Shown here: positions 17,211-42,065 of the stretch, piece by piece
How positions within the stretch are numbered: position 1 is the first letter of the stretch
Layout: every line of letters begins with the position of its first letter
NCBI GenBank assembly: GCA_030248295.1
Contig: JASANH010001440.1
Span: forward strand, 372,001-436,000
Direction: 5' to 3'
Length of the DNA stretch: 64,000 nt
Source of the DNA: Mesodorylaimus sp. YZB2_4
Taxonomy: Eukaryota; Nematoda; Enoplea; Dorylaimida; Dorylaimidae
Position numbers and translations under genes: made by a program
The notes under the pieces: model-generated
Database searches by the model: none
The model's input: the letters and a program-made list of their open reading frames with translations, nothing else
Told to the model about the DNA's origin: nothing

Positions 17211-17284
17211 ATGTTAAGTGAAATGACACTCTCCACCATCGTACTGGTGTTAAATATCACTTTAAATGGGTAGGTGTACCCCAT

Positions 17285-21626: not shown

Positions 21627-22031
21627 ATGCCCAAGCAGTTGGCTAGCTTACTCATTCTTATTGTGACCGCCCATATTTGTACGGCAGCAAAACATTCTGG
21701 ACATCCAATGGCTTCTGTCATCCACAAACGTTCAACTCGCTCATTGCCCCAACTTATTTTGCAACAATTCGCAAAACTAAATGAGACCGAGAAAAAAGAA
21801 CTTTTGCGTCAACTGGCCTCAACTGCCACCACCAGCTCCCATCAACCCGCTGATGATAATTTGAGTGAATTAAGCGAATATCGCAGACCTGTTGGAAAAT
21901 TGGACGAAATGGCGCAAGAATTCAGCCACTCTCTATTCGTCTTGGAGGCACTGATCAGACATCAACGTGTAAGAGGCAGAAAACAGAAAATTTTATCCAT
22001 AACAAGAAAAATGTTGGAGCAAGTGGGTTAG
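21627..22031 (+). CDS. DH44/CRF-like neuropeptide precursor 1
   Basis: A 134-residue secretory precursor. The signal peptide is 'PKQLASLLILIVTAHICTAA'. An acidic and basic linker follows. After a dibasic site (EYRR) the C-terminal peptide is about 46 residues long, begins PVGKLDE, contains 'HSLFVLEALIRHQRV', and ends 'RKMLEQVG' directly before the stop. A C-terminal Gly at the stop codon is the normal substrate for peptide amidation, giving RKMLEQV-amide. Length, position at the precursor's C-terminus, amphipathic helical character and an ending like (N/R)-R-x-L/M-L-x-x-I/V-amide are features of corticotropin-releasing-factor and insect diuretic-hormone-44 peptides. It aligns along the whole C-terminal part with the gene at 41664. 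The family assignment is inference from pattern; the secreted amidated-peptide reading is stronger. Confidence 0.65.
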   Translation: MPKQLASLLILIVTAHICTAAKHSGHPMASVIHKRSTRSLPQLILQQFAKLNETEKKELLRQLASTATTSSHQPADDNLSELSEYRRPVGKLDEMAQEFSHSLFVLEALIRHQRVRGRKQKILSITRKMLEQVG

Positions 22032-23466
22032 AGGCTAAACCAACCCCGAGCTACCCCGAATACTCGATATTGACAGAATTTATCTTGTGTATTTACAGTA
22101 TGTGCACGTGTTGAGATTTTACTATTTGCTCGTTGATACGCCAGTGTATGCCAGATAAGCATGTTAGAACGGGTAACAGTCATTCAGTAACCTTGTGCAC
22201 TCTTGTCCCACAGTACTCATTATTTTTCGATGGCACGAAAATTACATGTCAGTTGTTTATATTCGAAGAGCAATTCAATGGTCTGCTGCTCGAAAAAGGT
22301 TATATTTTTTGGCTGCTAAACGCAAGGCAAGGTCTAATGAATCTAGGAAAATGAAAACAGTTGTCGTCGACGGTTTTATGGAAGTATCTACAGTAAATCT
22401 GTCTTTGACCTTGCTCTTTGTAAACGGACGATGAGGAAAGCGACCGCTGGCAGAGAGGATTGGTCAAATCACACATATCACAGAGTACAATTCAACTTAT
22501 GCACCTCTAACTCTTACCAACTTTAGTACGGATCTTCACATTTGTAAGCGTTTTTGATAGGAATAAGGTTGTATCAAATGAAGGCGTCCAGGATTAGTGC
22601 GAGATATTCGAACCTCTAAGATATGTCTCAATGTACAAGCACATGCATTGTAGTGCGATCTTTTCAAAGCTGGTCGCGTGACTCTTTCTTATCCCAGCTT
22701 TGCAGATGCCCGCTGAGAACACTGTTGTGGTACAGTGAGACTATATCTCGAGTGAATGCCTAAAATACCTCCTGGTGAGACTTAGTTCAGGCATCCTACG
22801 CCTCACCGGGTTATTGATACCCAATCAGTCTTCACCATTTCTAAAGACGAGCTTAGTGATAGCTCACACGTAGGCTCACAATAATCATGCCGGCTTAGGT
22901 GCATCGCTAAGACTGTTCTAAATCAAGCATCTCATCTATTAGAACTCCTCAGTTCGATTGTGGGAGGATTGTGCTGTTTATATTCCAAGCTAAATATGGT
23001 AGGTAACGTACGAGTATTCTTCAAAGCCAGCACCTGCACATTCTGCTTGTAACCAGAAACTACATCTGCAAAAATCAATAAATGTTAAGAATGGAGAGGA
23101 CTTCGGAAGAAAGCACTTTTTGAAAGGAGATACGTCAGGAACTTGAACCTTGCTCGACAATGTTGGTGACACGCTGGTTTTCATAATGGAGTTTTTGTAG
23201 ATATTTGCGCATACGCTCAACTTAACCAGCTGTCCATGTTTCCATTTCCACGTAGGTTATTTGATCACAGTGAGGTTTCAGTTTCTGATCCGCCTGCTAA
23301 ATTACTTTACGTTGGAGGAGAGACGACTAAATCACGCCCCCACAATTTCTATATTTCGCGACTGCCATGGCTGAAGCGGTGGGTCGAAAAGAATGTTCAG
23401 CTGTTATGGCGAGAACTTTCCATTCAAGTAGAAATAGTTTACATTGGAACACCCACCTGATTACTA
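22032..23466. other. Spacer with no supported gene
   Basis: Only short frames. The frame at 23236-23460 lies upstream of the broken channel but does not resemble its N-terminus. Confidence 0.4.
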
Positions 23467-25229
23467 GATGTTACGAAAATTATAATCTGGTCAGTGGGCT
23501 GCACTTTATTGCTCATATTGACCATTCATGATTTTCTACCTTTATTGTCCGAATATAGAAATAATAATGTTGCTACGCAGGTAGGAGTTGTGTTGGTGGA
23601 TGAAAATTTCAGACCTCCCCATGTGATTATAAATTTCCCACAATGCAAAATAAGAGACAAAGATAACGATGACCTATTGAAGCAGCTCGATATTTATATG
23701 GTAGTGGGAGTGACTGGGAGGAAAATTGTGAAGCGTGTAGAAAATTGGCAAAGGATGTTGGGATGTTTGGAATGATTTGAACATGACTAATTATTGTGAT
23801 TTGGGGTTGGACACAACTTACAACGCCCTATCGTTGACATTCAAAAATCGATTGCTTGCTCCAAACACAACCTACAAAGAAACTGTCCTTGAAAACGAGT
23901 ATTCTTTGTGGAACGAAGCCCTTATCTCCTCTACGATGAACTATTTCATGTGGTTAACCAAACGAGACTATCGCTTGGAAAGTTTAGATTTAGGCCCAGG
24001 CCTGCATCTCGATCAAAGCAGTTCTACAAAGCAGAATGATCGTTATCTAGATTTTTTGTTTTTACAAATGATGAACATAATTCGCAAAAAACTTAGCCTT
24101 CTCGAAATAGATAAATCGACAGAATTTAGACGAGGTACCCCGACAAGTAGGACGTGCATTGATTTGCTTCAGAAGCAGAATGTGCCCGTTGTGTGGCAGA
24201 CGACAGGGCTCTGGATACCTCTACCAACACTGGAAAAACCCGCTGTCAAAGAATATCGATTAGTTGACACTCAACTGAACGAGTCGTGTCGCCTTTCGAG
24301 AAATTCATCAGATCCATAAATCTCCAGTCTAATCACAGTTTTTCCTGATATTGGCGTGCAATACTCGACAAATATCGATCCTTTCTTTGCTTCTCACATT
24401 TATCAAACACCACTCGAATCGATACACTCGAGTCAAAGAGTATTAGCCAAGCACAACGTGCAAATGAGAGCCAAGGAAACACGTTAAAAAAAACACTTGT
24501 AAAAATGGGACCTGCGTAACTGCTAGTTTTGTTCGATTCACAAAGGAGTGGATCATTCAAAAATGCAAATGTGTTCTATTTACATACCGACATGGATTAA
24601 TTTACTCGGCTGATTTGCCCTATTGTAATTCCGCACACTATGCAATTTGCAACATAACATTCTTGCCTGGTTCAACCGGAGATACTTGCATGACCAAGTG
24701 TAAAGAATGCTGTCAAAACACATCCTACGTGTGGCAAATTGATTACGACATTTATCAGTCGCCAAACACAAACAGTACAGAATTCATATTGCGCATGGAA
24801 CCAAATTTTGATGCATTTGCCGAATTTTCATGGACAGTAAAAAATACACCGGAACAATTTTTTAGCCAGTTGGCTGGTATTGTTAACTTTTACCTTGGCA
24901 TTAGCGGGCTCTCCTTCTTAGCATTTTCATCAGCTTGTTTGAACCTAATAAAAAGCTGCTGGCATTTGACGCAAGAAAGAAAAGCGAAGGAAAATTCGAA
25001 AAGGGGACCATCAGGAAAATTGGAAAGCGGGCTAGAAAATGAAGACAGATTGGAAAAATCGATTAAACTGAAGGCATTTGGGACAAAGTTGGACGAAGAA
25101 GAACTCGTTTTGAGGTTGGCTGATGCAATAAAGGAAAAGCTGAAATTAGACATAGAAAGCGCTCTTGACATCAAATTCGCGGCAGCATTTGCGTCAAGGC
25201 TAAATGCCAGCATGAGCGAATCGACCTAG
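23467..25229 (+). pseudogene. DEG/ENaC-family channel paralogue, frame-disrupted
   Basis: Follows the intact channel at 15513-17210 nearly end to end: TM1 'IIIWSVGCTLLLILTI', then 'YRNNNVATQVGVVLVDE', 'EYSLWNEALISSTMNYFMW', 'SHIYQTPLESIHSS', 'VQMRAKETR', 'CMTKCKECCQNTS' and TM2 'YLGISGLSFLAF'. The frame is broken repeatedly: a shift near 23700 after 'QLDIYM' (the next matching words 'WEENCEACRKLA' are in another phase), stops near 23775, a TAA at 24317-24319, a TAA around 24485 followed by shifted fragments, and a return to frame by about 24600. The last 200 codons are clean and include a charged cytoplasmic tail of roughly 85 residues, much longer than in the intact paralogue. Probably a recent pseudogene, though the open C-terminal third is notable. 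Confidence 0.8.
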
Positions 25230-25677
25230 GGAGACCCTCATATGAAACCATATTTTACTTGATGGCAAAGGCATATCGCGATAGTAGTCTATTTTGCATG
25301 CTCTACGGCTTTATTGGGATGCCGCTGAAATCTGGTCATAGCCAATATAGGCCGGTTATTTTATTTTTTTATTTGCTGCTATATCAGCTGAACGCGTGAG
25401 CTTGGCTCTGAGTGTATAGTACATGAAATATGGTTTTAACAGGCATTATCGTACTTAGTTAGCTTCATCCGAAATACAGAGCGGCGCACGTTCGCGTCAG
25501 ATGCTATTGTTTCTCTGGTATCGGAGGAATATGTTTTTGCATGATTAGGCTACTGCATAACCTTATTTTTCCAAAAAAAAGGAAAAATTTATGCTGATAT
25601 TGCACTGTTGTTGCACTATTCAGACGTGATAAATACCAGGAGTTGCACTCTTCGTCACAAACATCGCTAATGTCCGA
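25230..25677. other. Spacer with no supported gene
   Basis: AT-rich. I see no coding or structured element. Confidence 0.4.
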
Positions 25678-26125
25678 TTAGTAGCCTTTCTTCACTTCAT
25701 CGACTCTGGACGTCCCAGTGATTTCGAATTCGAACCAAGGCACATCGACTTCTTCAGCAGACAACTTTCTCGGTCTCAAAGAGCGCACCTTCCAAAAGTA
25801 AAATCCAGGCTGGATGAATGTTTTGTTCCAGTACGTTTCAGTGGTGGCGCTGTGCATAAAATTGTTTTCGTTTGACGAATAAATAATTAGGTCGTATTTG
25901 AAGGCACCAACAACGCCAGTCCAGCTGAAAGTGATTTCTTCACGGACCCCAAGTTTCTGGTGATGTTTCGGATTCAAGCGGGTAGGGGACGGCACATGAC
26001 ACAATGCTATAAATGACACCAATGAGAGGCTATCTGTAAAAAAAGACATCAGTTCTAGACAGCTTAGCATCCTTACTCAGTTGAAAGCAGAAGGCCACTA
26101 AAAATGCAGCAGTGAAACCCGCCAT
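25678..26125 (-). CDS. Small protein with one fibronectin-III-like domain
   Basis: Two exons on the minus strand, 26125-26077 and 26033-25678, joined by a 43 bp intron (gtaagg...tacag) in correct phase, encode 134 residues. The N-terminus is hydrophobic over about 30 residues ('MAGFTAAFLVAFCF', then 'SLSLVSFIALCHV'), fitting a signal peptide or signal anchor. The rest looks like a single beta-sandwich of the fibronectin type III kind: 'EITFSWTGVVGAFKYDLIIY' (B-C strands), a Thr-rich middle, 'PGFYFWKVRSL' (F strand) and a final strand 'WFEFEITG'. No further domain follows, so it is probably a small secreted or membrane-tethered adhesion-like protein. Its partner is unknown. The neighbouring ABCG gene is transcribed in the same direction but shows no functional link. 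Confidence 0.6.
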
Positions 26126-26945
26126 GGTGCTAGAAAATATAGGCGCTACTATAGTGGTGAAGGAGAGGTGTTCTGAAAATGTGGTAGCTGAAGTTAGGCC
26201 AGAAAATACTTTTATATTTTTAAGGTTAGTCATTCGTGACCAAGCGAATTGAACATTCATGAACTCTTGAGCTGCGCGTACGGTCTGTCTGACGATGACT
26301 TGTCTTGCTGGAGCACTGATCTATATCCTAACAAAAGTGCTAAGCACGCAAAACACACGTAAAAATTTCAAAAACAGGTGCTAAATTTTATGTTGGTGAT
26401 ATCATTCGGCGTGCCTGAACTAATCGTGAGTAAATTAACCTATGACTAACGATACCAAAGCATGTACCGTATAAAAGTGCTGTGGACTTTGCCTGCTGTG
26501 GAATTTGTCTTTGTTGTCAAAATGGTCAAGTTTTGTTTGTTGAGAAAATGCTTATCGTAAGAGGAGAACTATGTCTTCACTCGTTGCGGGAGCTAGTGTG
26601 CGGATGTTTTTTGTTTTAGAATTACGCGTTGTACAGAGGTATTCAACTAGCTAGGATGCATGTAGATAGAGCAGCTAAGCTGAGAGGGTGAGATCAAACA
26701 GGAGATAGCAGCACCTAGATCAGTGCCAATTTCATTTCTTTTCGCATATATTGCTTGGTTTATCAAGGTCACGAAGACAAGAAGAAAGATAGACAATCGA
26801 TACAAATTGTGATAAATTGATCAAATTTGAATTTAGCGGGTTTTGTACTTAGAATAAATGCTACTGGAAAAAAAAGATGCAAACTGGACGGGGATCGATA
26901 TAAGTGAAAAACGGGGAAACGATCTTTTTAAATCTTCAGAAAAAT
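26126..26945. other. Spacer between the FN3-like gene and the ABCG gene
   Basis: Contains the promoter side of the FN3-like gene and the 3' UTR of the ABCG gene (both minus). No further gene is supported. Confidence 0.4.
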
Positions 26946-29900
26946 CTACCGATGTCGACGACATTGCCAAAACAAGGCAAGAAAAGCACCTATTCGAAAT
27001 AGAATAAAAAACCCTAACAATATAATCACTTTTTGCCACCAGGGGCCATCTACTTCGTTCGTCACGAACCCTTGATTTTTGAACCTAAAGAAACAATAAA
27101 AAAATCTTCGAGTGTTCGCTTGCGGAATTTCAACTTACACTTCAGTAAAATTTTCATTATAATCGCGATCAAGGCCGTAGATAGCCACAAGAGAACATTC
27201 ATAGGCATATCTGACATAAGAAAAATATGAAATCCATTTCAGGTATGCAGTTATTTTTTGGATTGGTATGAAGAATCCACTGAATAGTAAAATGGGAATG
27301 GCAGATATTGGACCCAGGAAAACGGCTACCTAAGAAACAAGCTGATTCTTTCGACGATCGAATAGGATCTCGACTTACTTGTAGGGAGGAAGCTGCCCCG
27401 ATAAATAAGCCCAACGACTGGGCAGTCAAAGACACCAGAACTGAGGCGGCCAGGAATAAACTGAAACGTGAGAATTCGGCAGGTTGGGACGTCATAAAAT
27501 AAATTATTATAAAATAGAGGAAGGCAAATGTGGCCTGAAAACAAATTGTGTTGCTTAGTGGAGCCAAAGCCTGGACTAAAAATATTTACAAGGCGTTACC
27601 TGAAATGGTGCATCGGCCAATGTCTTTGCAAAGTAGTAGTTGCATAAACTGTACCAGCTATTCAAATGTTCTCGAAGAAACACTTCCCTTTCCAAAGGAA
27701 CTAAGAAAGGTAAATTCAAGGATTTGATGTCAGAGCAGCAAGAGTTTCCGCTCTTTACATGTCATGATGGTGGGCATCAAAGCTGTGAACATAATGAATA
27801 GCATGGATATAAATATGCAGGCTTTGTTAAATAGTTGTTGCTCATTGTCTTTTCCGATGTCAAAGTAAAGTCCCCCGATCAGTAACCCGATCCCGATGTG
27901 GGAAAGAAGACGTAGTAGCGACAGATTCTATAAATAAACCTTTGTAAAAAGTTCTCTTTGAAAATCACTGACGTGCAGGAATTCATAAAGCTTCTGAGAA
28001 AATCGTCTTCGAAAAACTATGTACACTGCGCAAGAATTCTAGCAGCAACAGCATGTGAAGCATGAATTTTCAAATACCCGAAAAACTGATATTGCTTGGC
28101 AGATCCAGCATAAAGTTATTGTTGTAATTGTAATTAAGGGGTATTGCAGCAATGCTAGAAGGAAATCGCTGAATTTGTGATTGATCACTGTTGAAAGCAG
28201 CATTGTAAAATAATAAACAATGGATTACATACAGCTTGTCTCCATAATTTTAATAATATTCCTTCAATGATTTATGAATTTTACAGTTTTCAGAAAAATT
28301 AAACAGGGAAGGATACGCCAGAGTAATTTTGTTTTTTGCACAGGCCTGAAAAAGCTGACGAGTTAGCCAACCAAACCCGCTCCTTCAGAAAATTGGGTCT
28401 GCCAAGAAACCACCAAAACAACAATGGCAACTGTACTTCTCTCCAATAAAAACTCATGTGCTATCCATTTCTAATGAAAAACCATTTACGTACTTAACCT
28501 TGAAGGACGTCCATAGCCTACAACAGCTTATAATCATTATGAGCTGGCGCTCGAAATTTTTTAAAATTTTGGTAAAAATTAGGGCGTAGTTCCAGCCAAA
28601 ACTTTCTAAAAAATCCTTCAAAAAATCCTGTGGCTTTATCCTTCACCAGTACCATTCTTTTTACGCTCAACAAGTAAAGTTCAAATAAAAACCATTAATC
28701 ATTTCAATTTCTGATTGTGACCGAAATTCAGCTGTTTATTGCAATCTGTCATTGCATCGCATTTTGATACAAGCAGCGAATCAAAAGCGGCAATTCAAAT
28801 TTTGCGGGCTTTAACACTTTGACCCAGCCCGACCCGCTCATTTTCAAAACTTGGCCGACCCAATCCCGACCCATTGACGTTCGACCATGTCCTGGTCGGG
28901 TAGGCTTTAGACTACCTGTGTCAAGCCTGAATTTGACCATATTCGTACGTATATAAATATGTTATCGCTGTCCTGTGAAGCGTTTTCTCCGCACACATAT
29001 GTACTTGCTTACTCTCTCTCGCACAATGCATTTGAAGGTGCGTAAGAGTAATATCATGAAGCCCGTAAACGGCAAGGCCGCAAATATTCTCCAGTCCCTG
29101 TTGGATTTCAGAGTCGATTTCTGAAAATTGCTTTTTCACTATGGCTGGGTGAAAAAATTTCATGCCTGTGTTCTCAGCAGCTAGCTCAGCCAGCTCAACG
29201 ACCACTTATCGTCATTTCGCCAGTAGAAAGCAGAATCTTACCTTAAGAGTTTCCTCTGGTTGGCACTCGCAATTATCGACAAAACCGTTGGTCAATTCTT
29301 CAAGCGGAACTGGACTCGAGTTTTTCTGGTCACTTGTAATGATAATGTCACTTTCGGGCGCTTTCTTCCCACTTTCTTTTTTCTCCTGATTTACAATGTT
29401 AGCGCGTGCATTCCCTGTTTGCTTACTCTCAATTGTTCTATGGAACGAATCAACCGTGCTTCGAAGGCCTTGCTGATCATGAGTCAGTCCTGTCGCATTA
29501 TCGCATTCACCGTCTCTGACGCATTGAGCCAATTGCTCTTGCACTTTTCCATAGACGCCCGAAGCCACTTCAATGACTAGATCAGAATTGACAACAGATT
29601 CTGTTTTGCACCATGTCTCTAATCTGCTTACTAAAATCGGCTGGATTATGATAAGCTGGACAGCACAGACTCTTCGAGTTCAAATAAGGCAACAGCGATG
29701 TAACGCTGCCTTTGAAAATGCATTCTCCACTTGCCATGATAAACAGCTGAAAAAAGTATTATGTATAACGTTAGTTCTTATTTTAGTGAAAAAACACGTT
29801 TTACTTTGTCGAAAAGCTCGAAACATTTTGCTGATGGTTGATGTATTGTGCATATGATAGTTCTGTGGTCGTCATCTTTCACTAGGCTTTTCAATAAACT

Positions 29901-30981
29901 GACACACTCGAACGACGCCTGCGAATCTAATCCGGTCGTTGGCTCATCCAAAAACATGACTTGTGGATTATTGACTAGTTCTTGTGCGATACTCAGGCGT
30001 TTCCGTTGGCCACCCGAAAGGTTGCAAGCCTTTGTATTTTTATGATCACCTAGCCCCAAACTGGCCAATATCTCGTCGATCTGCAGCATTGAACCGTGCA
30101 CATGAGGTCCAAGAGTAGAAAGCATTAGCGACTCACCATTTCCATTTTCTTATCAAATGAAGATTTAGCCGGTAATTTCAAATGCACTGCAGCTATCATG
30201 CATTCCGTGACAGTTAAATTTGGTAATAATTCGTCGCGTCGCATAATGTAACAAGATTTATTGCGCAAATCGCTTAAGTCATGGTTTTTATTATTGATTC
30301 TTATCGTGCCTGATGATGAAATTCTAAAATAATTCATCTTCATAAGTATCGCACAATAACATATTTTGCCGTCTGTGTTTTCCTGTTAGCCAGCTCGCAC
30401 ATATTTCGCCGATTTTTTCTCGAAGAAACTGATTAATGGCACACGTCAGGCACCGAAGTTTTCAGCGCTGGGATTTATCCGAGAGAAGAAACTCAGATAT
30501 TCGATATACTTGATGAGAAAAAATCAGGAAAAGGCGCGCTGCTAAAATGGGGTCAACCTACCTGTAGCCAGCGAGAATGTTCATCAGTGTTGTTTTACCA
30601 GCTCCAGACGGTCCCATTATAGCTGTCAACTCCCCACTGTAAAATGTTCCAGAAACTGTTTGCAACAATGTTTTCGGTTCTGTAAAGCGAACATTTTAAA
30701 CAGGGCAGATAATCAAGTAAGATTAACCTCCGTGCACTACTGTCTTGATCAGAATTTCTACTGATATGTCAAAATCAGTCGCTATTCTCACCTGATTTAA
30801 CACCAATCAATCTGGCAAATTTATTCATCGTTACTGTATAGCTAACATTTTCAAAAGATATATCGATCGAATTTTGGCACCGAAGTAGCGTGGATATTCG
30901 GCGTTCCATCTTTACATTGGAGCCGCTACGAGCAGGCATGGTAACGAGCTCGGTGGCGTTTGCAGGCATAGCTCTTTCCAT
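26946..30981 (-). CDS. ABCG-family half-transporter (ABCG1/ABCG4-like)
   Basis: Membrane half-transporter that dimerises and uses ATP to export lipids, sterols or small metabolites. Twelve exons on the minus strand: 30981-30792, 30679-30562, 30323-30137, 30080-29805, 29746-29632, 29576-29242, 28038-27973, 27927-27759, 27700-27600, 27534-27379, 27329-27139 and 27084-26946. Total 2043 nt (680 aa), with all phases agreeing. The nucleotide-binding domain comes first, as in all ABCG proteins: Walker A 'GPSGAGKTT', signature '[12 protein letters not shown]', Walker B '[13 protein letters not shown]', H-loop 'TIHQPS', then '[17 protein letters not shown]'. A long polar linker of about 100 residues follows, then six predicted membrane segments, including '[14 protein letters not shown]', '[18 protein letters not shown]', '[11 protein letters not shown]' and '[13 protein letters not shown]', which point to the ABCG1/4 branch more than White/Scarlet. 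The membrane-domain exon 28038-27973 is the least certain, because a 1.2 kb intron (28039-29241) precedes it. Confidence 0.93.
28039..29241 (-). other. Long ABCG intron with repeat-like material
   Basis: Twenty times longer than the gene's usual introns. Around 28815-28905 it holds repeated 'cccgaccc' words of the kind seen at 58940-59030 and 61150-61215, suggesting an inserted hAT-like fragment. A minus-strand frame near 28990-29165 is open and Leu/Ile-rich, but has no resemblance to ABCG sequence. Confidence 0.45.
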
Positions 30982-31973: not shown

Positions 31974-32006
31974 CGCCCGGCAATCAAGACGAATCGACCT
32001 CGATCG

Positions 32007-33776
32007 TCATGCCTTCGTCCTTGTCCACGGTTCGGGTTGGTATCGTACAGTCTTGGTTGGATTGGCCCGCAGTCCGTGTCCGCGTGTCCGAATAGCTTGA
32101 GCGTTGGTCGTTGTGGATGAGGCCGCCCCTGGAGACTTACTGGCTGCGGGCTGGGTGGGGTTACCTGTAGGCTCTACATCTTCTGCTGGTTCTGGAAGAA
32201 CTGGGGATTGACGAGCAGGCACTCCAGCACTGACGGTTGACGGCACCACTGATTGCTCGGTCGTTGTTCGAATTCTTGGTGACGTTGTAAGAGGAGGCGG
32301 CGGGGAGTGGGTGGCTACCCTGTGGCACTGAGCGGGTTCTTTTGTAGCATACTTGGACGGGCCATGATCGACATTCGTGGGTTCTGGTATCGCTTGCGCC
32401 GACACTCCATGGTTGGTACCAGCGGTAGTTTCCTTTCCTGAAATCATATCTTCATCCTCTTCGTCTTCGTTTGGTGGTAGTTGCCAGGGCGCATGGCACT
32501 TCTTTAGGCGATTGTTATGTACCAGCTTATTCTGCCCTTGGGGCTGGTCCCACAGGCGGATGACGCTGTCTAGCACAGTTGGCTTGGCCAGAACGATGTA
32601 AGGTCCTTCCCATTTTGGTTGCAACTTCGCTCCCAGACCCTTTGGCATAGTTTGTAACCATACGAGAGAGCTGATAGCAAAATCTGGTGGCTGAATGCCT
32701 TTATCGTAATGCTCATTTTGTCGTTCCTGTGCTTCCCGCAGGTTGTCACGTACAATGCCTTTCATTACTTCCAAACCAGCTTCCACGTCACTCGCTTAAT
32801 CTTTTACTTTCTTGTGCTCTCGCGGCTGAACTGAGAATTCGCCTGGTATGCGAGGTTCTCTGCCAAACATGACTTTATACGGCGACATTTTTGTGGAAGA
32901 CTGGATTGACGATCGGTATGCGAACAATAGGAATGATAACGCGGCGTCCCACTCTTTCCCAAACTTCGACAAGTAGATGCCAAGCATCGTTCCCAAAACT
33001 TTATTAAATCTTTCGGTTAGGCCATTGCACATTTGGTGATTTGCTGTGGTGCTTTTCTTGTTGATGTCACATATTTGGTAAACGTCTTGCATCATTTGCG
33101 ATAGGAATTCGGCACCACGATCAGACACAAGCTCATTACAGCTCCCATACCGACAAACGATTTCTTGAATGAAAGCTTTAGCACATACCTTAGACATTTT
33201 ATTTGGGAGCGGTACGGCTTCCACCCAGCGTGTAAAGTAGTCTGTAAAAACGATGATATACGTGTTTCCTTGTGACGTGGGCGGCAGAGGCCCAAACAAG
33301 TCGACTCCTGCGCGTTCCCAAGGGCCTGTGGTGAGAGGCATTGGTTGGAGGGGAGCGGTCAGAGTACGATTTGGCTGTTTGAAACGAGCGCACACTGTGC
33401 ACTGTTTGACGAATCGTTCCACGTCTTGGAAGTAGCCATCCCAATAGTATCGCTGTACTAACTTATCGAAAGTCTTACCAATTCCAAAATGAGCTGCGAA
33501 CGAATTACCATGGCATTGCTGGAGTATTTCGCCCTTTAAGTTATGCGGCACCACCACCTGCAGCACTGGTCCTGCGTTCTTGCTCCAGCGCATCAAATGA
33601 ACCAAAAGGCCATCTTTTAGCAAACATCGTGGCCTTTCCAGCAAGAATCTCTTGGCGAGCTGTTCATCCTGCGGCAGTAGGCCCGTCTCCAGCAATTCAA
33701 TTCTTGCCTTCAATGCACTGTCATGTCGTTGGAGCGATACTAGCTCAGCTAAAGCTAGCTTGGTTTGCTCAAGCAC
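32007..33776 (-). mobile_element. Ty3/gypsy retrotransposon fragment, integrase and C-terminus
   Basis: The frame 33776-32796 encodes the end of pol. It has a zinc-binding HHCC unit (His 89 and 96, Cys 126 and 129) and an integrase core with Asp 159 (GVDLFG), Asp 219 (SDRGAEF) and Glu 255 (TERFNKV); the last pair has 35 residues between, as expected for DD35E. After an in-frame TAA (32798-32796) the frame continues at 32786 with a GPY/F-type module ('PKWEGPYIVL') and a Pro/Thr-rich tail ending at 32007. Protease, reverse transcriptase and RNase H are absent, so the element is 5' truncated exactly where the pogo-like fragment begins. It is not autonomous. Confidence 0.9.
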
Positions 33777-33784
33777 ATAATGCT

Positions 33785-34352: not shown

Positions 34353-34670
34353 TACTTATAAACACTTGATGAATTGTAAGAGAAAAAAAATGTTTTCTTA
34401 TCTTATCGGAGCAGGTCAAGCGAATTTGTAAATCAGAGCCTGTCACAATAGTTTCATCTGATCCCTGATTAACCTGTAGCAAAAGCGCATCTAATGAGCG
34501 TGAGCACGTATGGTTGACTGAACTGTGAATTATACAAAAGAGCAAGAAAAAAGAACATCTAGTGAATAAACTAAAGGAATAAAATAAAGTACTTTGCTGA
34601 TTTAACGCAAAGGGCAGTGTGACCTTCGGTGCGAAATTCAATGGGTATGAGCAAGCTTTATTTGATTCCG

Positions 34671-35414
34671 AAAAAAATCTGTTATCAGGCAACGAAAAGG
34701 TTAGCCCAGCCACCGTAGCCTAACCGAATGCAAGGCCAGACGAAGTTGGCTGGGCTCCCTCGACGGTGCATGCTTGAGTGGGTTATACTTATCCAGACAT
34801 GATATATCTACGTTTATGTTGCGTTCAGGGTGGGCTAACAATCGTACTTCCACACACACCTACAATGCATGCCTCTGTGATTTACTCGGTGCATCACGGG
34901 GTCATGGGATTTTATGTTTTCTGTTTTTCAACAAAGGCTAGTACCCACATGCATATACTTATTCGTATTTTGGAGTAAGCTCGGAAGCTTGGACCTTTGA
35001 AATACGATTGCCTTTTGTTATCTCGAACTTACTTGGGGAACAATGAGGACCTGCTGCAGTAAGGTTGCATCTGCCGTGACATGTGCAGCATGTGTAGCAC
35101 CTTCCTAGTGACACTAAAACAGGAAGATCAGCTTCTGTGGAGCCAGCATGCTAATAGCTTTAGGCTTACAACCTTCTGCAATAGAACGACTATCGGCCCT
35201 TGTGTTTCCATCTCTCTATTGCCTGAATGAAGTGGCTGAGGTAGGGGACGCACTGTTACACTTTTTATTAATGACAGTGTAGCTATTCTGTTTGATCACA
35301 ATTTTTTCACAAACGCCGCCGAGGGAGCCCAGCCAGCCTCGTCTCGCCTTGCATGTGCATGTGGTTAGGGTGGCTGGGCTAACCTTTTCGTTGTCTGATC
35401 ACAGAATTTTTTAG
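34671..35414. mobile_element. MITE with ~95 bp terminal inverted repeats
   Basis: The left terminus (34671-34768: 'aacgaaaaggttagcccagc', 'ggctgggctccctcgacgg') returns inverted at 35316-35414. The interior of about 550 bp is non-coding. A one-ended copy lies at 5363-5915. At least two copies in 64 kb point to an abundant family. Confidence 0.8.
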
Positions 35415-36579
35415 AAATAATAGTACTTTTTCATACCCACATTTGGTTTAGGAATTCAGAATAGATAAAAGAAGTTTGTCGTCTAGTCCCTCCTGAGCTG
35501 ACGCAAATTTCGTACAAGGAAAGTTCCCACGTTATGCTCAGTCACTGTTGCCTAGTGCGCAAAAGTTCCAGACTGTCTAGGCTAAACAGGCAACTAATGT
35601 GGCTGTTGATAGTCGGGGGGTTTTCGCACTGTTGAAGCACTTCATTGCCGGTTGCCAGCAAAAAATCAACATTCGAGTCATTTTCTGGTGGCATACGGCC
35701 TCAATTTCCGCAACAAATATTCTTTGCTATAGAGAATGTACAGTAGATCGCGAGTAGATTTTTCAAAAACTTTGGGCTTATAAATCAAAAACAATAAAAA
35801 GCAAGCCAACTAATCCACCAAACTAAAGCAAAAAATTCAACCAAACTGAACAGAACAGAACACTCGTCTCGGCCAGTTATTTTAACGGAGGGCGACTTCG
35901 GCCTAGGGCTAGCAGAAACAGCACGGCTAATAAAAAATTCCACCTGCTGGTGGTATGCTTTAAAATTTGGGTCCGGGTTCGATCACAAAAAATTAATTAG
36001 CTTGGATCTAAAAGTCGCAAAAGAATAATTCGCGCTATGAGAGCTTACATAAAAACCAACTCTTTGGTCCGTGGCTTTAGTGGTTGTTGCTGTCGACGTG
36101 TCTTTTTTAAAAGTACGTCGTCCGTCGTCCATCCCCAAAATTTTGTGCATTTTTGTTGATTTGTTGTCGAGTTATGGACGGGCTGGCCTAAACAGGCAAC
36201 CGACTTGCCTGTTGATTTCTCGACAGCTTACGCAGGTTGATTTTTAATAACGCCTTCCAGGCAGAAACTTCGCTTCTAGTTATGTAGACACTGACGCAGA
36301 CTGAAACTAGCATATACTAATCTCCTTTTGTCACCGAACCTTTTGGCCCAGAACATATTTATAATTATGCTGGCACAATGAGGGGGCTTTTTCACCCCCT
36401 CAACGCCTTGCGTTGTGATTTCTAGAAACTATGCACATTAATGAAAGCTCACGCAGACAGGAAACAGCATTCGTTCGCATTTGGCCAATTTCGAAGCCTT
36501 CTTCGTGATCTTACCAAGGCGATATGAAAACTAGCGATAATATTTATATGGACACAGTGTCATTGGCGATATTGACTCG
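35415..36579. other. Spacer with no supported gene
   Basis: No convincing frames. A strong small hairpin (gagggggct...caccccctc) lies at about 36381-36404; see the rejected items. Confidence 0.35.
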
Positions 36580-37440
36580 GCAGGCACCCAACCATTTCTG
36601 TTTGTTACAATGGCTCCAATCGCTCTCATATCAAACCTGCTCACTTTAATCACCATCATCTTTTCGAAACCATTGCATCTAAAGAGTCAATATGTTATTT
36701 TCAGTCATAGTGTAGCAGAAATATTTTCATGCTCGGCTTACAGCATAGTTGGTTTAGTCAAATATTTAGGTTATGTTCATGGACAGCCTGGGACAGCAAA
36801 TCAATTGACGTGCATTGTTAAAGAATTGCCGTTAATTTTGACCAATACCGCACTATCGTGCCTCACCGTAGGACTTGCTATTGATCGATGTTTGTGTGTT
36901 TGCCATCCTGTGTTCTACAAATCCCTGCGAGATTTTATTCACGTAGTCTTTATATTTGCCATCTCATAGGGGGTATTCTTTTTTGAAAACCTTTCTTGCC
37001 TTTCTTGAGTTTGATGTGCATAAAATATTTCCAGTTTTCAGTTCCACTACCAGTTTCTCGTTCGCATTTGCCAGATATTCGGTCATAGGAGGTTTTATTC
37101 TTATCCCGACGACAGTTGTCATCTATTCCGCATCCGCGTGTATATTATACAAACGATACAGGGCCATAAATTTTGCGGGAGATGGTCAAAGGAATAAGCG
37201 GAAGCGGCAGATGGATTTTAGTGAATTTTTAGCTATGACCATTGTCGCTATTATTTTCAAAATTTGTTACGGAATTGTAGGAATCATAAATCGAGTCGCT
37301 GCATAAAAATTTACTGCAGATGCTGCCGTGTATTTTGCTCCGAAAACCTCTCTGATTTTGTTAAGAAATTCGTTCTGTCACTTTCTTGTATTATGCATTA
37401 ACAGATCATTCAGGAAAGAATTTAAGATTATCTGCGGATG
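36580..37440 (+). pseudogene. Rhodopsin-like receptor pseudogene 1
   Basis: Seven-helix receptor related to the intact gene at 38347-39330. TM1 is 'FLFVTMAPIALISNLLTLITIIF'; then 'SQYVIFSHSVAEIF' (TM2), 'LAIDRCLCVCHPVFY' (DRY-like end of TM3), 'GFILIPTTVVIYSASACILY' (TM5), 'FLAMTIVAIIFKICYG' (TM6) and 'SLILLRNSFCHFLV' (TM7). Lesions: an in-frame TAG after 'VFIFAIS' with a shift over a G run at about 36970, and a TAA after 'IINRVAA' at about 37304. The matching copy at 39840-40312 carries the same two stops. The TM4 segment is not recognisable. Confidence 0.75.
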
Positions 37441-38346
37441 AAAAGAAAATGCCGCCTGAGTATTTGTTGCGACAACGTGAAATTACAGTACCAAGCCTAT
37501 GAGTTTTAGTGGCAAAAAATAGCATAACCGTAATATTATTTATCTGTCGTGAGCTGATCCATATCGCCTGAAATTGGGCGCCGAAAAAGGGCTTGTCGAC
37601 AAGAAGGCGTTCGGTTTTTTAATAAACGAAATAGCTTCCAAAAATAGTTTCCGAAATTATTGAAAAAATAGGCAACGCAGAAATTTTTTTTATCCATTTA
37701 AGAAACATACATATGTTTTAGGTTCTCTTGCTGTCCTGTCCTGTGCGGGTTTCTTCGTCCGTTTATTTTTCGCACAGGACATTGAAAAGGGTTAATGCGC
37801 TATAAAGTGCCGTAGCGAAGCCCGCGGGAAATTTAAAGTTCAAAATGCCAAAAAATGCATTCCAGAAGCATGATTTTCAGGAAATATCTTTTGGGAAAGG
37901 GGACTAGAATTTACAGAATGCCAACGCTCAAAAGATCTCCTAATACTGTAGAGGGAGCTGGAAACGAAAAAAATCCTTAAGCTCTCAAATGCTAATCTGA
38001 TGCAACTTTGGGCACGAAAGCACTGCTTCTCGACTATCAAGCTGACATATCACAGTGATTATGATGCTAAGAGCGCGGAGTAGAATGGAACACGGGTGGA
38101 TAACCCACGTCTGCTGGCATTCCTGCGATGTTGGAATAAAAACAATGTCAGTGCCAAAAATGACTACAATAGATAACATCTGTTTTGTATTAAGCACAGC
38201 AACACTACATCTAAAAACATAAAGAGCTTCGGGCTAACCAATACAAATATGAATATAAATTGCATAAGTTCTTATCATTACTTCAAAGCTATTACTTCAT
38301 TACTTATCATTACTTCATTATTCAATTACTTCACAGATATTTCATT
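37441..38346. other. Spacer with no supported gene
   Basis: AT-rich with a simple 'attacttcattacttatc' tract near 38275-38340, just 3' of the intact receptor. Confidence 0.4.
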
Positions 38347-39330
38347 TCATCTTCTAAAAATCCTTTCACAAAGCGCTTTTCTAAATGTCTTACTCATAAT
38401 TAAATAAACGAAGAAATGTGACGCAGAATTAAAAATCAACAGCAATGTTACATAAGGCGAAATAATTCGTTCCAAATCGTGATCTAGCGATTTTAGCAAG
38501 CTATAGGACAAATATGCAGCTCCAACCGACATGGCATAAGTCACTGTGATAATCACAACTGCTTTAAAGACAGCCAGTTCCAAATTTTTCTTTTCAGTTC
38601 TTTGACTCCTCATTGATAACCGTCTCAATTTTTTCACCCGTAGCCAAAGTATAGTCGCGGTGATGAACTGAAACAAAATTGTTGCACAGGCACGAAAATG
38701 GCAGGTCACGTCGTAGGACAGCATATAACCATCATTATAACAAGTAGCAAATGTACAAAGATTTAAAATCTTGTCTTTATGATAATTCAAAAATGAGAGT
38801 AGTCCATGAACCGAAGCAGGAATCCATGAAATAAAATTCACGAAACTAACATAATCCCGAATGTCTAGATTCCTGTAGAAAATTGGAAATGCAATGGAAA
38901 TACATCGATCGATACTTAACAGCAAAATAAGATTTCCAACAGCGCTTGGACAAATATTGATTGGCAGCGATTGCGCGATGCACTCCAATTGACTGACCTG
39001 TTCTGGCCAGGGAATTAAATATATAAGTAGTCTTTTCAGAGCAGTACAAGCATAGAAAAATGATTGAAGTATTTCAGCTACACTCAAACTAATCACGACG
39101 AATTGACTCTTCGTATGTAGAATTTTAGATTTTACGGTGACAATAATTAATAGAGCATTGCAAAAAATAGCAAAGCAAGAAGCGATAAGCCACGAAATGT
39201 GAGCTGGTGCTTGTAATTTGGCCAAAAAGATGGTAAAAGAAGTATTGGACAAATTAAAATCATTTGTATCAATCATTTTTCCAAAAATCGATTTAGACAG
39301 AGATGAAAAATAATTATCGGATATTATCAC
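38347..39330 (-). CDS. Rhodopsin-like G-protein-coupled receptor, intact
   Basis: Single-exon frame of 327 residues with seven hydrophobic segments. TM1 is 'WLIASCFAIFCNALLIIVTV'. The TM2 region has 'SQFVVISLSVAEIL'. TM3 ends in 'LSIDRCISIAFPIFYR', where DRC replaces the usual DRY. TM5-TM6 carry a basic loop ('WLRVKKLRRLSMRSQR'). TM7 reads 'SPYVTLLLIFNSASHFFVYLI', without a classical NPxxY. The SIDR...P.FYR pattern resembles nematode-type serpentine chemoreceptors such as the srsx class, so a chemosensory or peptide-receptor role is possible; no ligand can be named. An N-glycosylation site (NLSN) lies in the extracellular N-terminus. Two related receptor pseudogenes flank it on either side in opposite orientations. 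Confidence 0.85.
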   Translation of the reverse strand: MIISDNYFSSLSKSIFGKMIDTNDFNLSNTSFTIFLAKLQAPAHISWLIASCFAIFCNALLIIVTVKSKILHTKSQFVVISLSVAEILQSFFYACTALKRLLIYLIPWPEQVSQLECIAQSLPINICPSAVGNLILLLSIDRCISIAFPIFYRNLDIRDYVSFVNFISWIPASVHGLLSFLNYHKDKILNLCTFATCYNDGYMLSYDVTCHFRACATILFQFITATILWLRVKKLRRLSMRSQRTEKKNLELAVFKAVVIITVTYAMSVGAAYLSYSLLKSLDHDLERIISPYVTLLLIFNSASHFFVYLIMSKTFRKALCERIFRR

Positions 39331-39360
39331 TTAGTCGTTACACGAATGAAATCAAAAAAC

Positions 39361-39405
39361 ATCGCAATCGCAATCGCAGTCGCAGTCGCAATCGCAGTCG
39401 CAAAA
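39361..39405. repeat. CGCAAT/CGCAGT hexamer microsatellite
   Basis: About seven hexamers alternating cgcaat and cgcagt, just upstream (on the minus strand) of the intact receptor's start codon. Confidence 0.8.
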
Positions 39406-39839
39406 AACATCGAAGCAGACAAACATCCAAAAAGAAAATTCAGGAATCACCCCATCCGTCATTTCGCAATTTGCACACAAACATTGCTGCGCGTAGCCTT
39501 GCCCAACTCTAATGCAATTTTATATTTGTACAGTAAAGTTTGCTCGAATGATCATCGCTTTCTACGCTATTGTGTGAGGCTTTTCATCCACTTCACGTCT
39601 GGTTTCGGTAAACTTGTTTGATCTCTCTGTCAGCATAATTTTGAATGAGACAAACCGCGATGAGGAGTCTACGTTTTACGTCCACGCGTAACGTACAAGT
39701 TTTTTCTTATGTATAGCGCGGAAAAAATTTGAGAGACGTAGGCAGACGCGGAAGCATAGATGGATACCAAAGATAGTCAAACCTTTGCATAGAATTGACT
39801 AGTTGCTCCTTGTTTTCCCATGATGTTCCCTGTAATCTT

Positions 39840-40312
39840 GAAAAATTCTTTCCTGAATGATCTGTTAATGCATATACAAGCAAGTGAGAGAACGAATTTC
39901 CTAACAAAATCAGAGAGGTTTTTTGGAGCACAATACACGGCAGCATCTACAGTAAATTTTTATGCAGCGACTCCATTTATGATTCCTGCAATTCCGTAAC
40001 AAATTTTGAAAATAATAGCGACAATGGTCATAGCTAAAAATTCACTAAAATCCATCTGCCGCTTCCGCTTATTCCTTTGACCATCTCCCACAAAATTTAT
40101 GGCCCTGTATCGTTTGTATAATATACACGCGGATGCGGAATAGATGACAACTGTCGTTGGGATAAGAATAAAACCTTCTATGACCAAATATCTGGCAAAT
40201 GCGAACGAGAAACTGGTAGTGGAACCGCAAACTGGAAATATTTTGTGCTCATCAAACTCAAGAAAGGCAAGAAAGGTTTTCAGAAAAGAATACCCCTATG
40301 AGATGGCAAATA
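39840..40312 (-). pseudogene. Rhodopsin-like receptor pseudogene 2, truncated
   Basis: Covers the end of TM3/TM4 loop to TM7 of the same receptor as 36580-37440, in opposite orientation and about 95% identical by eye. It has the same TAG after 'FAIS' and the same TAA after 'INGVAA', plus an extra A in the run before TM7. The copy stops at 40312, where the outer arm of a palindrome begins, so the rearrangement that formed the palindrome probably cut it. Confidence 0.75.
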
Positions 40313-41244
40313 TAAGACTGTGCATATTATGGCAAAAAGGCTCCGTGGCAAATCTTGGCAAGAGTACCAAGAAACCTTGAGCGCAACAATGGCTAGCTAG
40401 TTTACACAGATGTTTTGCTTTAAGTGTGTGCATGATTATGCTCTCAAAAGCGGAAACCACGAATGACAGAATCCATCGTGCGTCACTGCGAAAAACCTTT
40501 TTGGCAATGCCCTCGAATTCTTTGCTTCGAAACTTCACGAGGAACTCCTTTCCAGGTGTGGGTGCAGTCTAAAACGGAAAGGCCAAGATCCGGTAAATGT
40601 CATGAGCCAGCGCATGAGCAGTGAACGTCATCTGCTCAGGACAAGTCTTCAAATATCCCCACCCATGGAGCCTTTCTTTCGTACATTCCTTAGGCACGAA
40701 CAGGCGATTCAGGATCCTTCACGAAGTTGCTCTTACGCTTCCGTCTGAGATGACATTTGGTGAGTAGGCGAACAACCACGCCTACAGTACAAGATTATAT
40801 AGGTTTCACAGATATTCCAAGCAACTTCTAGGTCTCAGCTGCATGTTTTCACACCAAATATCCAGGAGTGATAATGTCGTGAACAGTGACCGCTGCAAGA
40901 CAATCAAGAATGTCTATTTCCTAGGCATCAAAAATCAAAAATCAATCAAAAATAAACATTTTTGATTGATTTTTGATTGATTGATTGATTGAAAATGTTT
41001 ATTTTTGATTGATTTTTGATTTTTGATGCCTAGGAAATAGACATTCTTGATTGTCTTGCAGCGGTCACTGTTCACGACATTATCGCTCCTGGATATTTGG
41101 AGTGAAAACATGAGAGCAATAATCATGCACACACTTGGAGCAAAACATCTGTCTAAACTAGCTAGCCATTGTTGCGCTCAAGGTTTCTTGGTACTCTTGC
41201 CAAGATTTGTCACAGAGCCTTTTTGCCATAATATGCACAGTCTT
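40313..41244. repeat. Large interrupted palindrome
   Basis: Inner arms 40842-40963 and 40991-41112 are nearly perfect reverse complements of about 122 bp around a 27 bp loop of repeated 'ttgattga'. Outer arms 40313-40445 and 41112-41244 continue the inverted symmetry. On the left side about 395 bp (40446-40841) is inserted between outer and inner arm. In total roughly 255 bp can fold back per arm. Confidence 0.9.
40446..40841 (-). other. Gene-fragment insertion inside the palindrome
   Basis: On the minus strand it has an exon-like layout. A frame with 'AHALAHDIYRILAFPF' ends at a possible acceptor (ttccgttttag), followed by 'PGKEFLVKFRSKEFEGIAKKVF' in part and 'ARWILSFVVSAFE', and this last frame runs on into the outer palindrome arm. 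The pattern faintly recalls the ligand-binding ectodomain of receptor guanylyl cyclases, but I would not assign it. Probably a displaced gene fragment. Confidence 0.35.
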
Positions 41245-41574
41245 ATATCGTCTGTTTGCACCCTACCGAGGATTACATTTTAGACGATCTATCGATCTTC
41301 TGGGGCACGCTACGAGTGTAAGCCTAAACGCTCTGTGAACATCTTTCTTAACCAGAATAAGGAACGTTTCGGGCCGCGTGGGTGTTTCTTTGTGCTCTCC
41401 ATGGGCACGTGAAGCCCACCAGCAGCCAGTGGGGAGGTTAGGTGTATGCGCGTCCTGGATCATTAACAATCGATATGTAGGCTAATTGCTGAGCTAAAAA
41501 CAGAATACCCTCACGTTCGTACTTTTAGAATCATGAATGAACGGGAGTATGCTTATATGAATACATCGGGACCT
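41245..41574. other. Upstream region of DH44/CRF-like precursor 2
   Basis: No gene. Leads into the TATA box below. Confidence 0.4.
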
Positions 41575-41582
41575 TATAAAAG
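41575..41582 (+). promoter_or_regulatory. TATA box (TATAAAAG)
   Basis: TATAAAAG lies 89 bp upstream of the ATG at 41664, leaving room for a 5' UTR of about 55-60 nt. It is the clearest core-promoter motif in the window. Confidence 0.6.
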
Positions 41583-41663
41583 AGACGCAGGTGAGTCTGT
41601 ACTCCCAGTGAGTTCTTTCCGCTCGTCTAGTTCGTCGAGTCGCCGATCTTGGCTCAGTCGCCA

Positions 41664-42065
41664 ATGGCTTCGCTAGTCCAGCATTTTCTATGCTTTCTTA
41701 TAGCGACGGGGACTGTCATGGCCATGCCACAAAGCGTGGTCCAACGGGGAACGCCAGTCGACGTTCCGTCTGTTATACTAACGTTTCCAGATCGAGAGAC
41801 AACTGTTTCACCGCCGTTGCCTTTATCAGTACCACCAAACTTGGCTCCTGCATCTGATTCATTAGTACAGCTGCAACCAGCCAGAGTTCGATCAATTGGA
41901 CGAGCGAGAAGGCACAGAAGACATCGAGAGAAACTGGATGATGTGGCCAAAGGTATAAACCATTCTATCTCTGTGGTCAATGATTTAATGCGCCGCCATA
42001 GACTGAGGAAGCAAAGGCAAAGGGTAGCCGATGAAACGAGACGACTCTTAGACAGTATTGGCTGA
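41664..42065 (+). CDS. DH44/CRF-like neuropeptide precursor 2
   Basis: A 133-residue precursor starting at ATG 41664; the frame also opens upstream, but without ATG. The signal peptide is 'MASLVQHFLCFLIATGTVMA'. A Pro/Ser-rich spacer follows, and then a strongly basic cleavage region (RARRHRRHR). After it the C-terminal peptide of about 44 residues begins EKLDDV, contains 'NHSISVVNDLMRRHRL' and ends 'RRLLDSIG' before the stop, giving an amidated RRLLDSI. 'SISVVN-L--R-RL' is close to the N-terminal 'SLSIVN-L-VLRQRL' pattern of insect DH44, and the amidated end matches CRF-type peptides. It aligns with precursor 1 over about 48 residues: the KLD start, the HS-V---L-R-R core and the Gly-stop end. 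Such peptides act through class B receptors in osmoregulation, feeding and stress. The assignment is inference from motifs. Confidence 0.7.
   Translation: MASLVQHFLCFLIATGTVMAMPQSVVQRGTPVDVPSVILTFPDRETTVSPPLPLSVPPNLAPASDSLVQLQPARVRSIGRARRHRRHREKLDDVAKGINHSISVVNDLMRRHRLRKQRQRVADETRRLLDSIG

What the first reader, a model, noticed from the sequence alone, without database searches (positions are those of the whole stretch)
21627..42065. Two DH44/CRF-like amidated-peptide precursors 20 kb apart
Frames at 21627-22031 and 41664-42065 have nearly the same length (134 and 133 aa), a signal peptide, a dibasic cleavage site and a C-terminal peptide of 44-46 residues ending in Gly just before the stop. 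The two peptides align end to end. The 'SISVVN' start and 'RRLLDSIG' end of the second match the DH44/CRF plan, while the first is more diverged. This suggests a duplicated, diversifying hormone system on one chromosome arm.
Basis: partly seen in the sequence, partly recalled or inferred. Interest (0 to 1): 0.75.

Follow-up and report, generated by a model that had tools for sequence, protein, structure and literature searches.

The report
Large family of CRF/DH44-like hormone genes
Two small genes in this animal DNA encode secreted-looking peptides that resemble, distantly, the stress and water-balance hormones CRF and DH44, and they belong to a scattered family of many such genes, where invertebrates are usually described as having one.

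Summary
Both frames are single-exon precursors (134 and 133 aa) with a hydrophobic N-terminus, basic cleavage sites and a C-terminal peptide ending in Gly-stop; the peptides align ungapped over 44 residues. They are not an isolated pair: searches of the window's own 145-Mb genome gave 17 intact members on 12 contigs and 7 broken or partial ones. The seven B-gene pairs tested have dN/dS below 1. In focused comparisons the shared core resembles CRF/DH44: profile-profile probability 90.7%, against 0.2% (PTH) and 1.3% (secretin); best of 100 shuffled profiles 10.6%. Gene 2 matches alone (z 7.7), gene 1 marginally. Database searches do not show it: no Pfam family passes its cut-off for the 8 of 17 members scanned, Pfam CRF finds nothing in the genome, and family profiles do not find CRF in the PDB. 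A CRF-receptor-like gene and a second one 75% alike exist. Best reading: an expanded, very divergent CRF/DH44/ELH-type hormone family. Species, expression and receptor activation are untested.

The parts
21627..22031 (+). Gene 1 (A1): single-exon precursor, 134 aa, ending Gly-stop
21627..21686 (+). Gene 1 presumed signal peptide (about 20 aa, hydropathy only)
   Evidence: cleavage point judged by eye
21888..22028 (+). Gene 1 predicted hormone region after RR (47 codons including the amidation Gly)
   Evidence: similarity to CRF/DH44 marginal on its own
41575..41580 (+). TATAAA box 89 nt upstream of the gene 2 ATG
   Evidence: 6 of 17 family genes have TATAWA at -150..-30; 6.4% expected from base shuffles; gene 1 has none
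41664..42065 (+). Gene 2 (A2): single-exon precursor, 133 aa, ending Gly-stop
41664..41723 (+). Gene 2 presumed signal peptide (about 20 aa, hydropathy only)
   Evidence: cleavage point judged by eye
41928..42062 (+). Gene 2 predicted hormone region after RRHRRHR (45 codons including the amidation Gly), CRF/DH44/ELH-like
43448..43574 (-). Inverted 127-nt copy (98%) of the gene 2 pro-region; lacks signal peptide and hormone region

Best explanation
Genes 1 and 2 are members of an expanded, very divergent family of CRF/DH44/ELH-type peptide hormone genes. Shown: single-exon coding frames, hydrophobic N-termini, basic sites, a C-terminal peptide ending in Gly-stop, dN/dS below 1 in the B pairs tested, and a likeness to CRF/DH44 in focused comparisons. 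Inferred: the precursor enters the secretory pathway, prohormone convertases cut at the basic sites, the terminal Gly is turned into a C-terminal amide, and the roughly 35-46-residue peptide acts as an extracellular ligand. By analogy its N-terminal half (HSLxVTNxxMR) would enter the receptor core and its C-terminal half ((N/T)(R/K)xL(L/M)xx(L/V)-amide) would bind the receptor ectodomain, on the two CRFR/DH44R-like receptors of the same genome. In subfamily B an upstream helix-like segment is equally conserved, so the mature product there may be a longer two-part peptide.
For: Family: 17 intact ORFs on 12 contigs; 16 of 17 end in Gly. Selection: 7 of 55 possible B pairs tested, dN/dS 0.14-0.62 for the whole precursor; core 0.07-0.29 in the 5 of 7 where it could be computed. 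CRF/DH44 likeness: hhalign of A+B 90.7%, A alone 83.0%, B alone 69.8%; PTH at most 4.9%, secretin at most 5.1%; 100 column shuffles of A+B gave at most 10.6%. With ELH added to the reference profile A+B gives 94.6%. Smith-Waterman z 6.4-10.5 for all 11 B genes, 7.7 for gene 2 and 5.8 for A3, 0 of 400 plain shuffles as good; 12 other class B hormones against the same references gave z -1.1 to 1.6. Spacing from the Arg to the Asn of the C-terminal motif is 15 and to the last residue 23 in B9 and in Tenebrio DH37, 18 and 26 in CRF. Receptors: two genes, C133 and C13, 75% alike in the exons compared; the C133 exons match CRFR1/2 best in the PDB (E 1.8e-5 against 0.064 for the next receptor type; 9.6e-8 against 4.6e-5). 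Yardsticks: Tenebrio DH37, an accepted member, does not find CRF in the PDB either, recalled Manduca DH30 misses Pfam CRF, and ELH against CRF/DH44 gives only 6.6% in hhalign.
Against: Pfam CRF (PF00473) and ELH (PF02323) do not appear at E up to 10 for the 8 of 17 members scanned in whole or part, and PF00473 finds nothing in the genome, whereas Tenebrio DH37 passes PF00473 clearly (2.3e-12). Profiles of 6 and 13 family peptides do not find CRF or urocortin in the PDB at E up to 10; gene 2 alone finds nothing. Split references weaken the result: A+B gives 67.2% against vertebrate, 58.9% against insect and 14.9% against ELH peptides; A alone 27.0, 12.6 and 41.8; B alone 37.1, 45.5 and 0.2. A4, C1 and C2 are not significant against CRF/DH44 (45, 32 and 86 of 400); in an earlier test C1 scored higher against a mixed set of other hormones (z 2.5) than against CRF/DH44 (z 1.0). 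Gene 1 is marginal. With four residue classes kept in place 6 of 400 shuffles of gene 2 do as well; B4 scores z 3.8 against the secretin family. Asp9 of CRF is kept in 0 of 17, Ser7 is Pro in 7 of 17, C2 ends in Pro. The PDB receptor hits are, as far as seen, vertebrate, so receptor type is approximate. No transcripts or peptides were available.
Confidence: 0.63

Rival explanations
1. A lineage-specific family of secreted amphipathic peptides (for example defence peptides) whose likeness to CRF comes from helix composition and an amidated end.
For: Large, scattered, partly broken gene family; arginine-rich peptides in subfamily A; likeness weakens when residue classes are kept in place; no CRF match in Pfam or the PDB.
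Against: The 11 B genes still beat two-class shuffles (0-3 of 400 as good) and four-class shuffles (0-6 of 400). Twelve other class B hormones do not match the CRF set. B9 has the same spacing as Tenebrio DH37.
Confidence: 0.18
2. An exocrine or allohormone use of a CRF/ELH-type peptide (gland secretion, mating fluid or saliva) that acts on other individuals or another species, which would explain the many copies.
For: Many genes but only two clear CRF-type receptor genes. [quoted passage not shown]
Against: No tissue data, and the species and its habits are unknown. The B pairs tested have dN/dS below 1 over the whole precursor (one helix-1 value is 1.4).
Confidence: 0.1
3. A new ligand family for one of the other class B receptors in this genome, and not for the CRF-type receptors.
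For: 26 HRM matches, 15 over the cut-off, so several class B receptors exist. A4 and the C genes do not resemble CRF/DH44 significantly.
Against: Profile comparison with PTH and secretin families gives at most 5.1%; calcitonin-type z at most 0.5.
Confidence: 0.09

Closest known systems
Insect CRF-like diuretic hormones (DH44; Tenebrio DH37 the best single match for 5 of the 13 members tested)
   Same: Helical-type peptide with S-x-[IV]-[TV] start, conserved Arg and (N)(R/K)xxLxx[ILV] end; B9 has the 15-residue Arg-to-Asn spacing of Tenebrio DH37.
   Different: Not found by the Pfam CRF profile, which finds DH37. At least 17 single-exon genes, whereas PMC9353778 states a single related gene in invertebrate genomes (passage).
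Vertebrate CRF, urocortins, urotensin I, sauvagine
   Same: Ungapped N-terminal register SLxVTNxxMR / SLDLTFHLLR; position 11 Thr in 10 of 17 and position 16 Arg in 13 of 17; hormone at the C-terminal end of the precursor (recalled for CRF).
   Different: Three residues shorter in the middle (B9); Asp9 absent in all 17; precursor ends directly in Gly in 16 of 17.
Molluscan/annelid egg-laying hormone (ELH/CDCH), grouped with DH44 (PMC8557429) or with DH44 and CRH (PMC4200219) (passages)
   Same: A2, A3, A4 match recalled ELH peptides (z 5.9, 5.7, 5.4); a multigene family with members expressed in non-neural tissues is known in a snail.
   Different: B1-B9 do not match ELH (z at most 0.9); no Pfam ELH match in the members scanned. 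[quoted passage not shown]

Membership tests
CRF/DH44 hormone family | Match to the curated profile PF00473 over its cut-off | tested here: not met
   No match at E up to 10 for genes 1 and 2, six core peptides, four precursors: 8 of 17 members in all; none in the six-frame genome. HMMER filters drop weak hits. Yardsticks: DH37 passes, recalled Manduca DH30 does not.
CRF/DH44 hormone family | Profile similarity to CRF/DH44 and not to other class B hormones | tested here: met
   hhalign 90.7% against 0.2% PTH and 1.3% secretin; 100 null profiles at most 10.6%. Weaker with split references (12.6-67.2% against vertebrate or insect peptides); no CRF found in the PDB by profile. References mostly recalled.
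CRF/DH44 hormone family | Secreted precursor with basic cleavage site and C-terminal amidation Gly | tested here: met
   Hydrophobic N-terminus in 17 of 17 (KD11 2.2-4.0; the start Met was chosen for the best run); terminal Gly in 16 of 17. In B, Arg stands before N/K-A-(G/A) in 10 of 11 and RxRG before the core in 8 of 11 (alignment). Processing itself not shown.
CRF/DH44 hormone family | Receptor-contact residues S7, D9, T11, R16 (named in PMC9353778) | tested here: inconclusive
   S 10 of 17, D 0 of 17, T 10 of 17, R 13 of 17. Several insect DH44 references typed here lack D9 too.
CRF/DH44 hormone family | CRFR/DH44R-type receptor in the genome | tested here: met
   C133 exons match CRFR1/CRFR2 best in the PDB; C13 is 75% alike to C133. 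Invertebrate receptor types could not be compared.
CRF/DH44 hormone family | Activation of such a receptor by the amidated peptide | not testable with these tools
   Needs synthetic peptide and receptor assay.
Egg-laying hormone (ELH) | Sequence similarity to ELH peptides | tested here: inconclusive
   A2, A3, A4 z 5.4-5.9; gene 1 2.3; B1-B9 at most 0.9, B10-B11 3.1 and 2.7; C1 3.2, C2 1.5. No Pfam ELH match in the 8 of 17 members scanned. References recalled; Aplysia ELH passes Pfam ELH, but no string was found in papers.
PTH, secretin/glucagon, calcitonin-type hormones | Sequence or profile similarity | tested here: not met
   PTH and secretin at most 5.1% in hhalign; z -1.9 to 2.2 except B4 against secretin, 3.8.

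The most novel reading that the evidence does not exclude
In this animal lineage the usual single DH44/CRF gene has been replaced by a radiation of at least 17 single-exon, strongly diverged CRF/ELH-like hormone genes, some with a second conserved helical part, signalling through only two CRF-type receptors: many ligands and few receptors, possibly used beyond the body in gland secretions.
Probability: 0.35. Interest if true: 0.75.

Novelty: new variant of a known kind. Interest (0 to 1): 0.6.

Why it matters
The CRF/DH44 system is an old stress, water-balance and reproduction hormone system, and invertebrates are described as having one gene for it (PMC9353778, passage). A genome with at least 17 diverged ligand genes and two clear receptor genes would be a natural test of how ligands diverge against few receptors. 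The family shares sequence features with insect DH44, vertebrate CRF and (subfamily A) molluscan ELH. If confirmed, it would also show that curated profiles can miss a whole branch of a well-known hormone family.

Tried and rejected
Parathyroid-hormone, secretin/VIP and calcitonin readings were considered (the HS...RLRKQ stretch of gene 2 looks VIP-like by eye) and rejected.

With the six-peptide profile, 11 of 12 PDB matches were coronavirus spike helices (best E 0.002 for the whole chain, 0.014 for the stretch) and one a transcription factor. With a 13-peptide profile they vanish and only two MYB chains remain (E about 4), so they are taken as chance helix matches. The Pfam names seen (LicP_NPro, OxRdtase_C, Androgen_recep, FliX, GAPT, Dishevelled, GSCFA) are weak; those whose cut-off was printed fall below it.

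Tardigrade origin was suspected, because of nematode-type Srsx receptors in the window, and tested with a recalled tardigrade CAHS fragment: no match at E 0.001. There was no positive control, so this shows little. The species remains unidentified.

A canonical DH44 precursor was sought with PF00473 and a recalled cockroach DH46; the only hit (E 2.04) is a bromodomain-like frame as judged by eye. A DH44 split by introns could be missed. Literature searches touching on CRF/DH44/ELH gene sets (open-licence papers only; 15 of 382 papers listed and 12 of 32) showed no report of such an expansion in the listings and passages I saw. Subscription papers, including a tardigrade neuropeptide survey that I only recall, were not available.

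They showed no CRF match in the PDB for a 13-peptide profile, and I had left out that and the split-reference results.
Full report
WHAT IS THERE. Both frames exist as described. Gene 1 (21627-22031) encodes 134 aa and gene 2 (41664-42065) 133 aa. Each begins with a hydrophobic stretch, carries basic sites and ends in Gly-stop. The C-terminal regions align without gaps over 44 residues with 16 identities; BLASTP gives E = 3e-11 for the pair. Gene 2 has TATAAA 89 nt before its ATG; gene 1 has no such box within 300 nt. A 127-nt piece of gene 2's pro-region lies inverted at 43448-43574, 98% alike; it has neither signal peptide nor hormone region.

IT IS A FAMILY. The window is C15:372001-436000 of a 145-Mb assembly of 1067 contigs. 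tblastn with gene 2 finds gene 1 (E 1.4e-4) and four further loci. Queries with those members, and with a hand-made consensus of the largest subfamily, extend the set. I extracted 17 intact single-exon frames on 12 contigs. Subfamily A: genes 1 and 2 on C15, one on C18, one on C105. Subfamily B: 11 genes on C10 (2), C27, C266, C198, C102 (2), C84, C158 and C89 (2). Subfamily C: C84 and C106. Seven further places are broken or partial: C127, C90 (2), C15:512.6k, C247 (2) and C84:142.5k. By the tool's own note the counts are lower bounds. In 16 of 17 intact genes the last codon is Gly; C2 ends in Pro. In 6 of 17 a TATAWA box lies at -150 to -30, against 6.4% expected from base shuffles.

CODING STATUS. 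In seven chosen B pairs of 55 possible, dN/dS of the whole precursor is 0.14-0.62. For the C-terminal core it is 0.07-0.29 in the five pairs where it could be computed. One helix-1 value is 1.4, three whole-precursor dS values exceed 1.5 (near saturation), and no significance test was made. Subfamilies A and C, and so genes 1 and 2, were not tested for selection. In B, an upstream segment (NAGDD...RAxAML) is as conserved as the core (mean pairwise identity 0.59 for both; signal region 0.29; linker 0.42). In the same alignment Arg stands before N/K-A-(G/A) in 10 of 11 B genes and RxRG precedes the core in 8 of 11, so in some the mature product may include both parts. Gene 2 lacks that segment.

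WHAT IT RESEMBLES. Database searches are negative. For the 8 of 17 members scanned in whole or part no Pfam family is matched over its cut-off as far as cut-offs were printed, and neither CRF (PF00473) nor ELH (PF02323) appears at E up to 10. PF00473 finds nothing in the genome. Gene 2 finds nothing in the PDB, and profiles of 6 and 13 family peptides do not find CRF or urocortin there. Yardsticks are mixed: Tenebrio DH37 passes PF00473 (2.3e-12) but does not find CRF in the PDB either, and recalled Manduca DH30 misses PF00473.

Focused tests do show a likeness. Against 14 CRF/DH44 peptides, Smith-Waterman z is 6.4-10.5 for all 11 B genes, 7.7 for gene 2, 5.8 for A3 and 3.5 for gene 1, with 0 of 400 plain shuffles as good. 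A4, C1 and C2 are not significant (45, 32 and 86 of 400). With residue classes kept in place the signal weakens: under four-class shuffles 6 of 400 do as well for gene 2, 5 for A3, 91 for gene 1, and 0-6 for the B genes. Twelve other class B hormones against the same references give z -1.1 to 1.6; known members left out in turn give 10.5-32.6. B4 also scores z 3.8 against the secretin family. Profile-profile comparison of A+B with CRF/DH44 gives 90.7%, score 29.6; 100 column-shuffled profiles reach at most 10.6% and 16.2; PTH gives 0.2% and secretin 1.3%. A alone gives 83.0%, B alone 69.8%, A+B+C 86.8%. With split references A+B gives 67.2% against vertebrate, 58.9% against insect and 14.9% against ELH peptides, and 94.6% against all together; ELH itself against CRF/DH44 gives 6.6%. 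In Smith-Waterman against four recalled ELH peptides A2, A3 and A4 score z 5.4-5.9, B1-B9 at most 0.9. References were recalled; urocortin 1, CRF, Tenebrio DH37 and locust DH46 were checked, most others were not.

ANATOMY AGAINST KNOWN CONTACTS. PMC9353778 (passages) names, among others, L8, L10, L14, L15 and S7, D9, T11, R16 of CRF as receptor contacts. In the ungapped register HSLxVTNxxMR the family has S7 in 10 of 17 (Pro in 7), L, V, I or A at 8 and 10 in 17 of 17, T11 in 10 of 17, R16 in 13 of 17 and D9 in none. From this Arg to the Asn of the C-terminal motif is 15 residues in B9 and Tenebrio DH37, 18 in CRF.

RECEPTORS. The HRM ectodomain profile matches 26 places, 15 over its cut-off; the 7tm_2 profile matches 64 at E up to 0.01. 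Two genes, C133 and C13:447.9-448.5k, share closely related TM exons (75%); the next exons are much weaker (E 0.0016 and worse). The C133 exons match CRFR1/CRFR2 best in the PDB: E 1.8e-5 against 0.064 for the next receptor type, and 9.6e-8 against 4.6e-5. According to PMC3961327 (passages) DH44 receptors were not retrieved in nematodes and are two in most arthropod genomes studied.

HOW IT MOST LIKELY WORKS. Shown: coding frames, family, dN/dS below 1 in the B pairs tested, likeness in focused comparisons, receptors in the genome. Inferred: secretion, convertase cleavage, amidation of the terminal Gly, and action on the CRF-type receptors. Not shown: expression, processing, receptor activation, species.

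NOVELTY. [quoted passage not shown] A family of at least 17 diverged single-exon genes is therefore unusual. My literature searches cover open-licence papers only and cannot show that it is unpublished. I file it as a divergent CRF/DH44/ELH-like family, not as DH44 or ELH itself, because the curated profiles are not met and orthology was not tested. The tree of 17 cores leaves genes 1 and 2 in one weakly supported group (67/46) with A4 and the C genes, so a local duplication of one into the other is not shown.

Noticed in passing
window 36945-37430 / 39833-40319, 40310-40446 / 41111-41248, 40842-40962 / 40992-41112, 41774-41900 / 43448-43574, 48573-48672 / 49264-49363, 60697-60855 / 60942-61100: Several local inverted duplications (arms 93-98% alike, under 3 kb apart) against one local direct one (46920 / 48101). 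Two more inverted pairs are less alike. In about 100 kb of other loci, each about 3 kb, only one inverted and no direct were found. Recent inverted duplication or an assembly effect.
   Followed up: partly
window 36541-37303 (+), 38350-39330 (-), 39963-40295 (-): Srsx/7tm_1-type chemoreceptor-like GPCR frames (36541-36966 and 38350-39330 scanned), part of which is inverted-duplicated between genes 1 and 2.
   Followed up: no
window 15516-17213 (-) and 23461-25226 (+): DEG/ENaC (ASC) channel frame; a second, similar copy in opposite orientation in several frames (seen by eye), 71% alike over one 143-nt stretch.
   Followed up: no
window 51584-53441 (+): Long frames with a repeated domain (KLSGTPF... 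/ KMKGTPW...) seen by eye; the first frame (51584-52411) has no Pfam match at E 0.01.
   Followed up: no
window 18767-19997 (+), 29781-30149 (-), 32799-33782 (-), 62048-63553 (-): Malate/lactate dehydrogenase (Ldh_2) exons, an ABC transporter exon, and integrase and reverse transcriptase frames of mobile elements. Described only.
   Followed up: no
L082 (C106:280819-281199): Family member C2 ends in Pro-stop instead of Gly-stop, so it should not be amidated.
   Followed up: no
L060-L062, L064-L069, L073, L074 (intact subfamily B loci): A second conserved helix-like segment (NAGDD...RAxAML) upstream of the core, as conserved as the core itself and absent from gene 2.
   Followed up: partly
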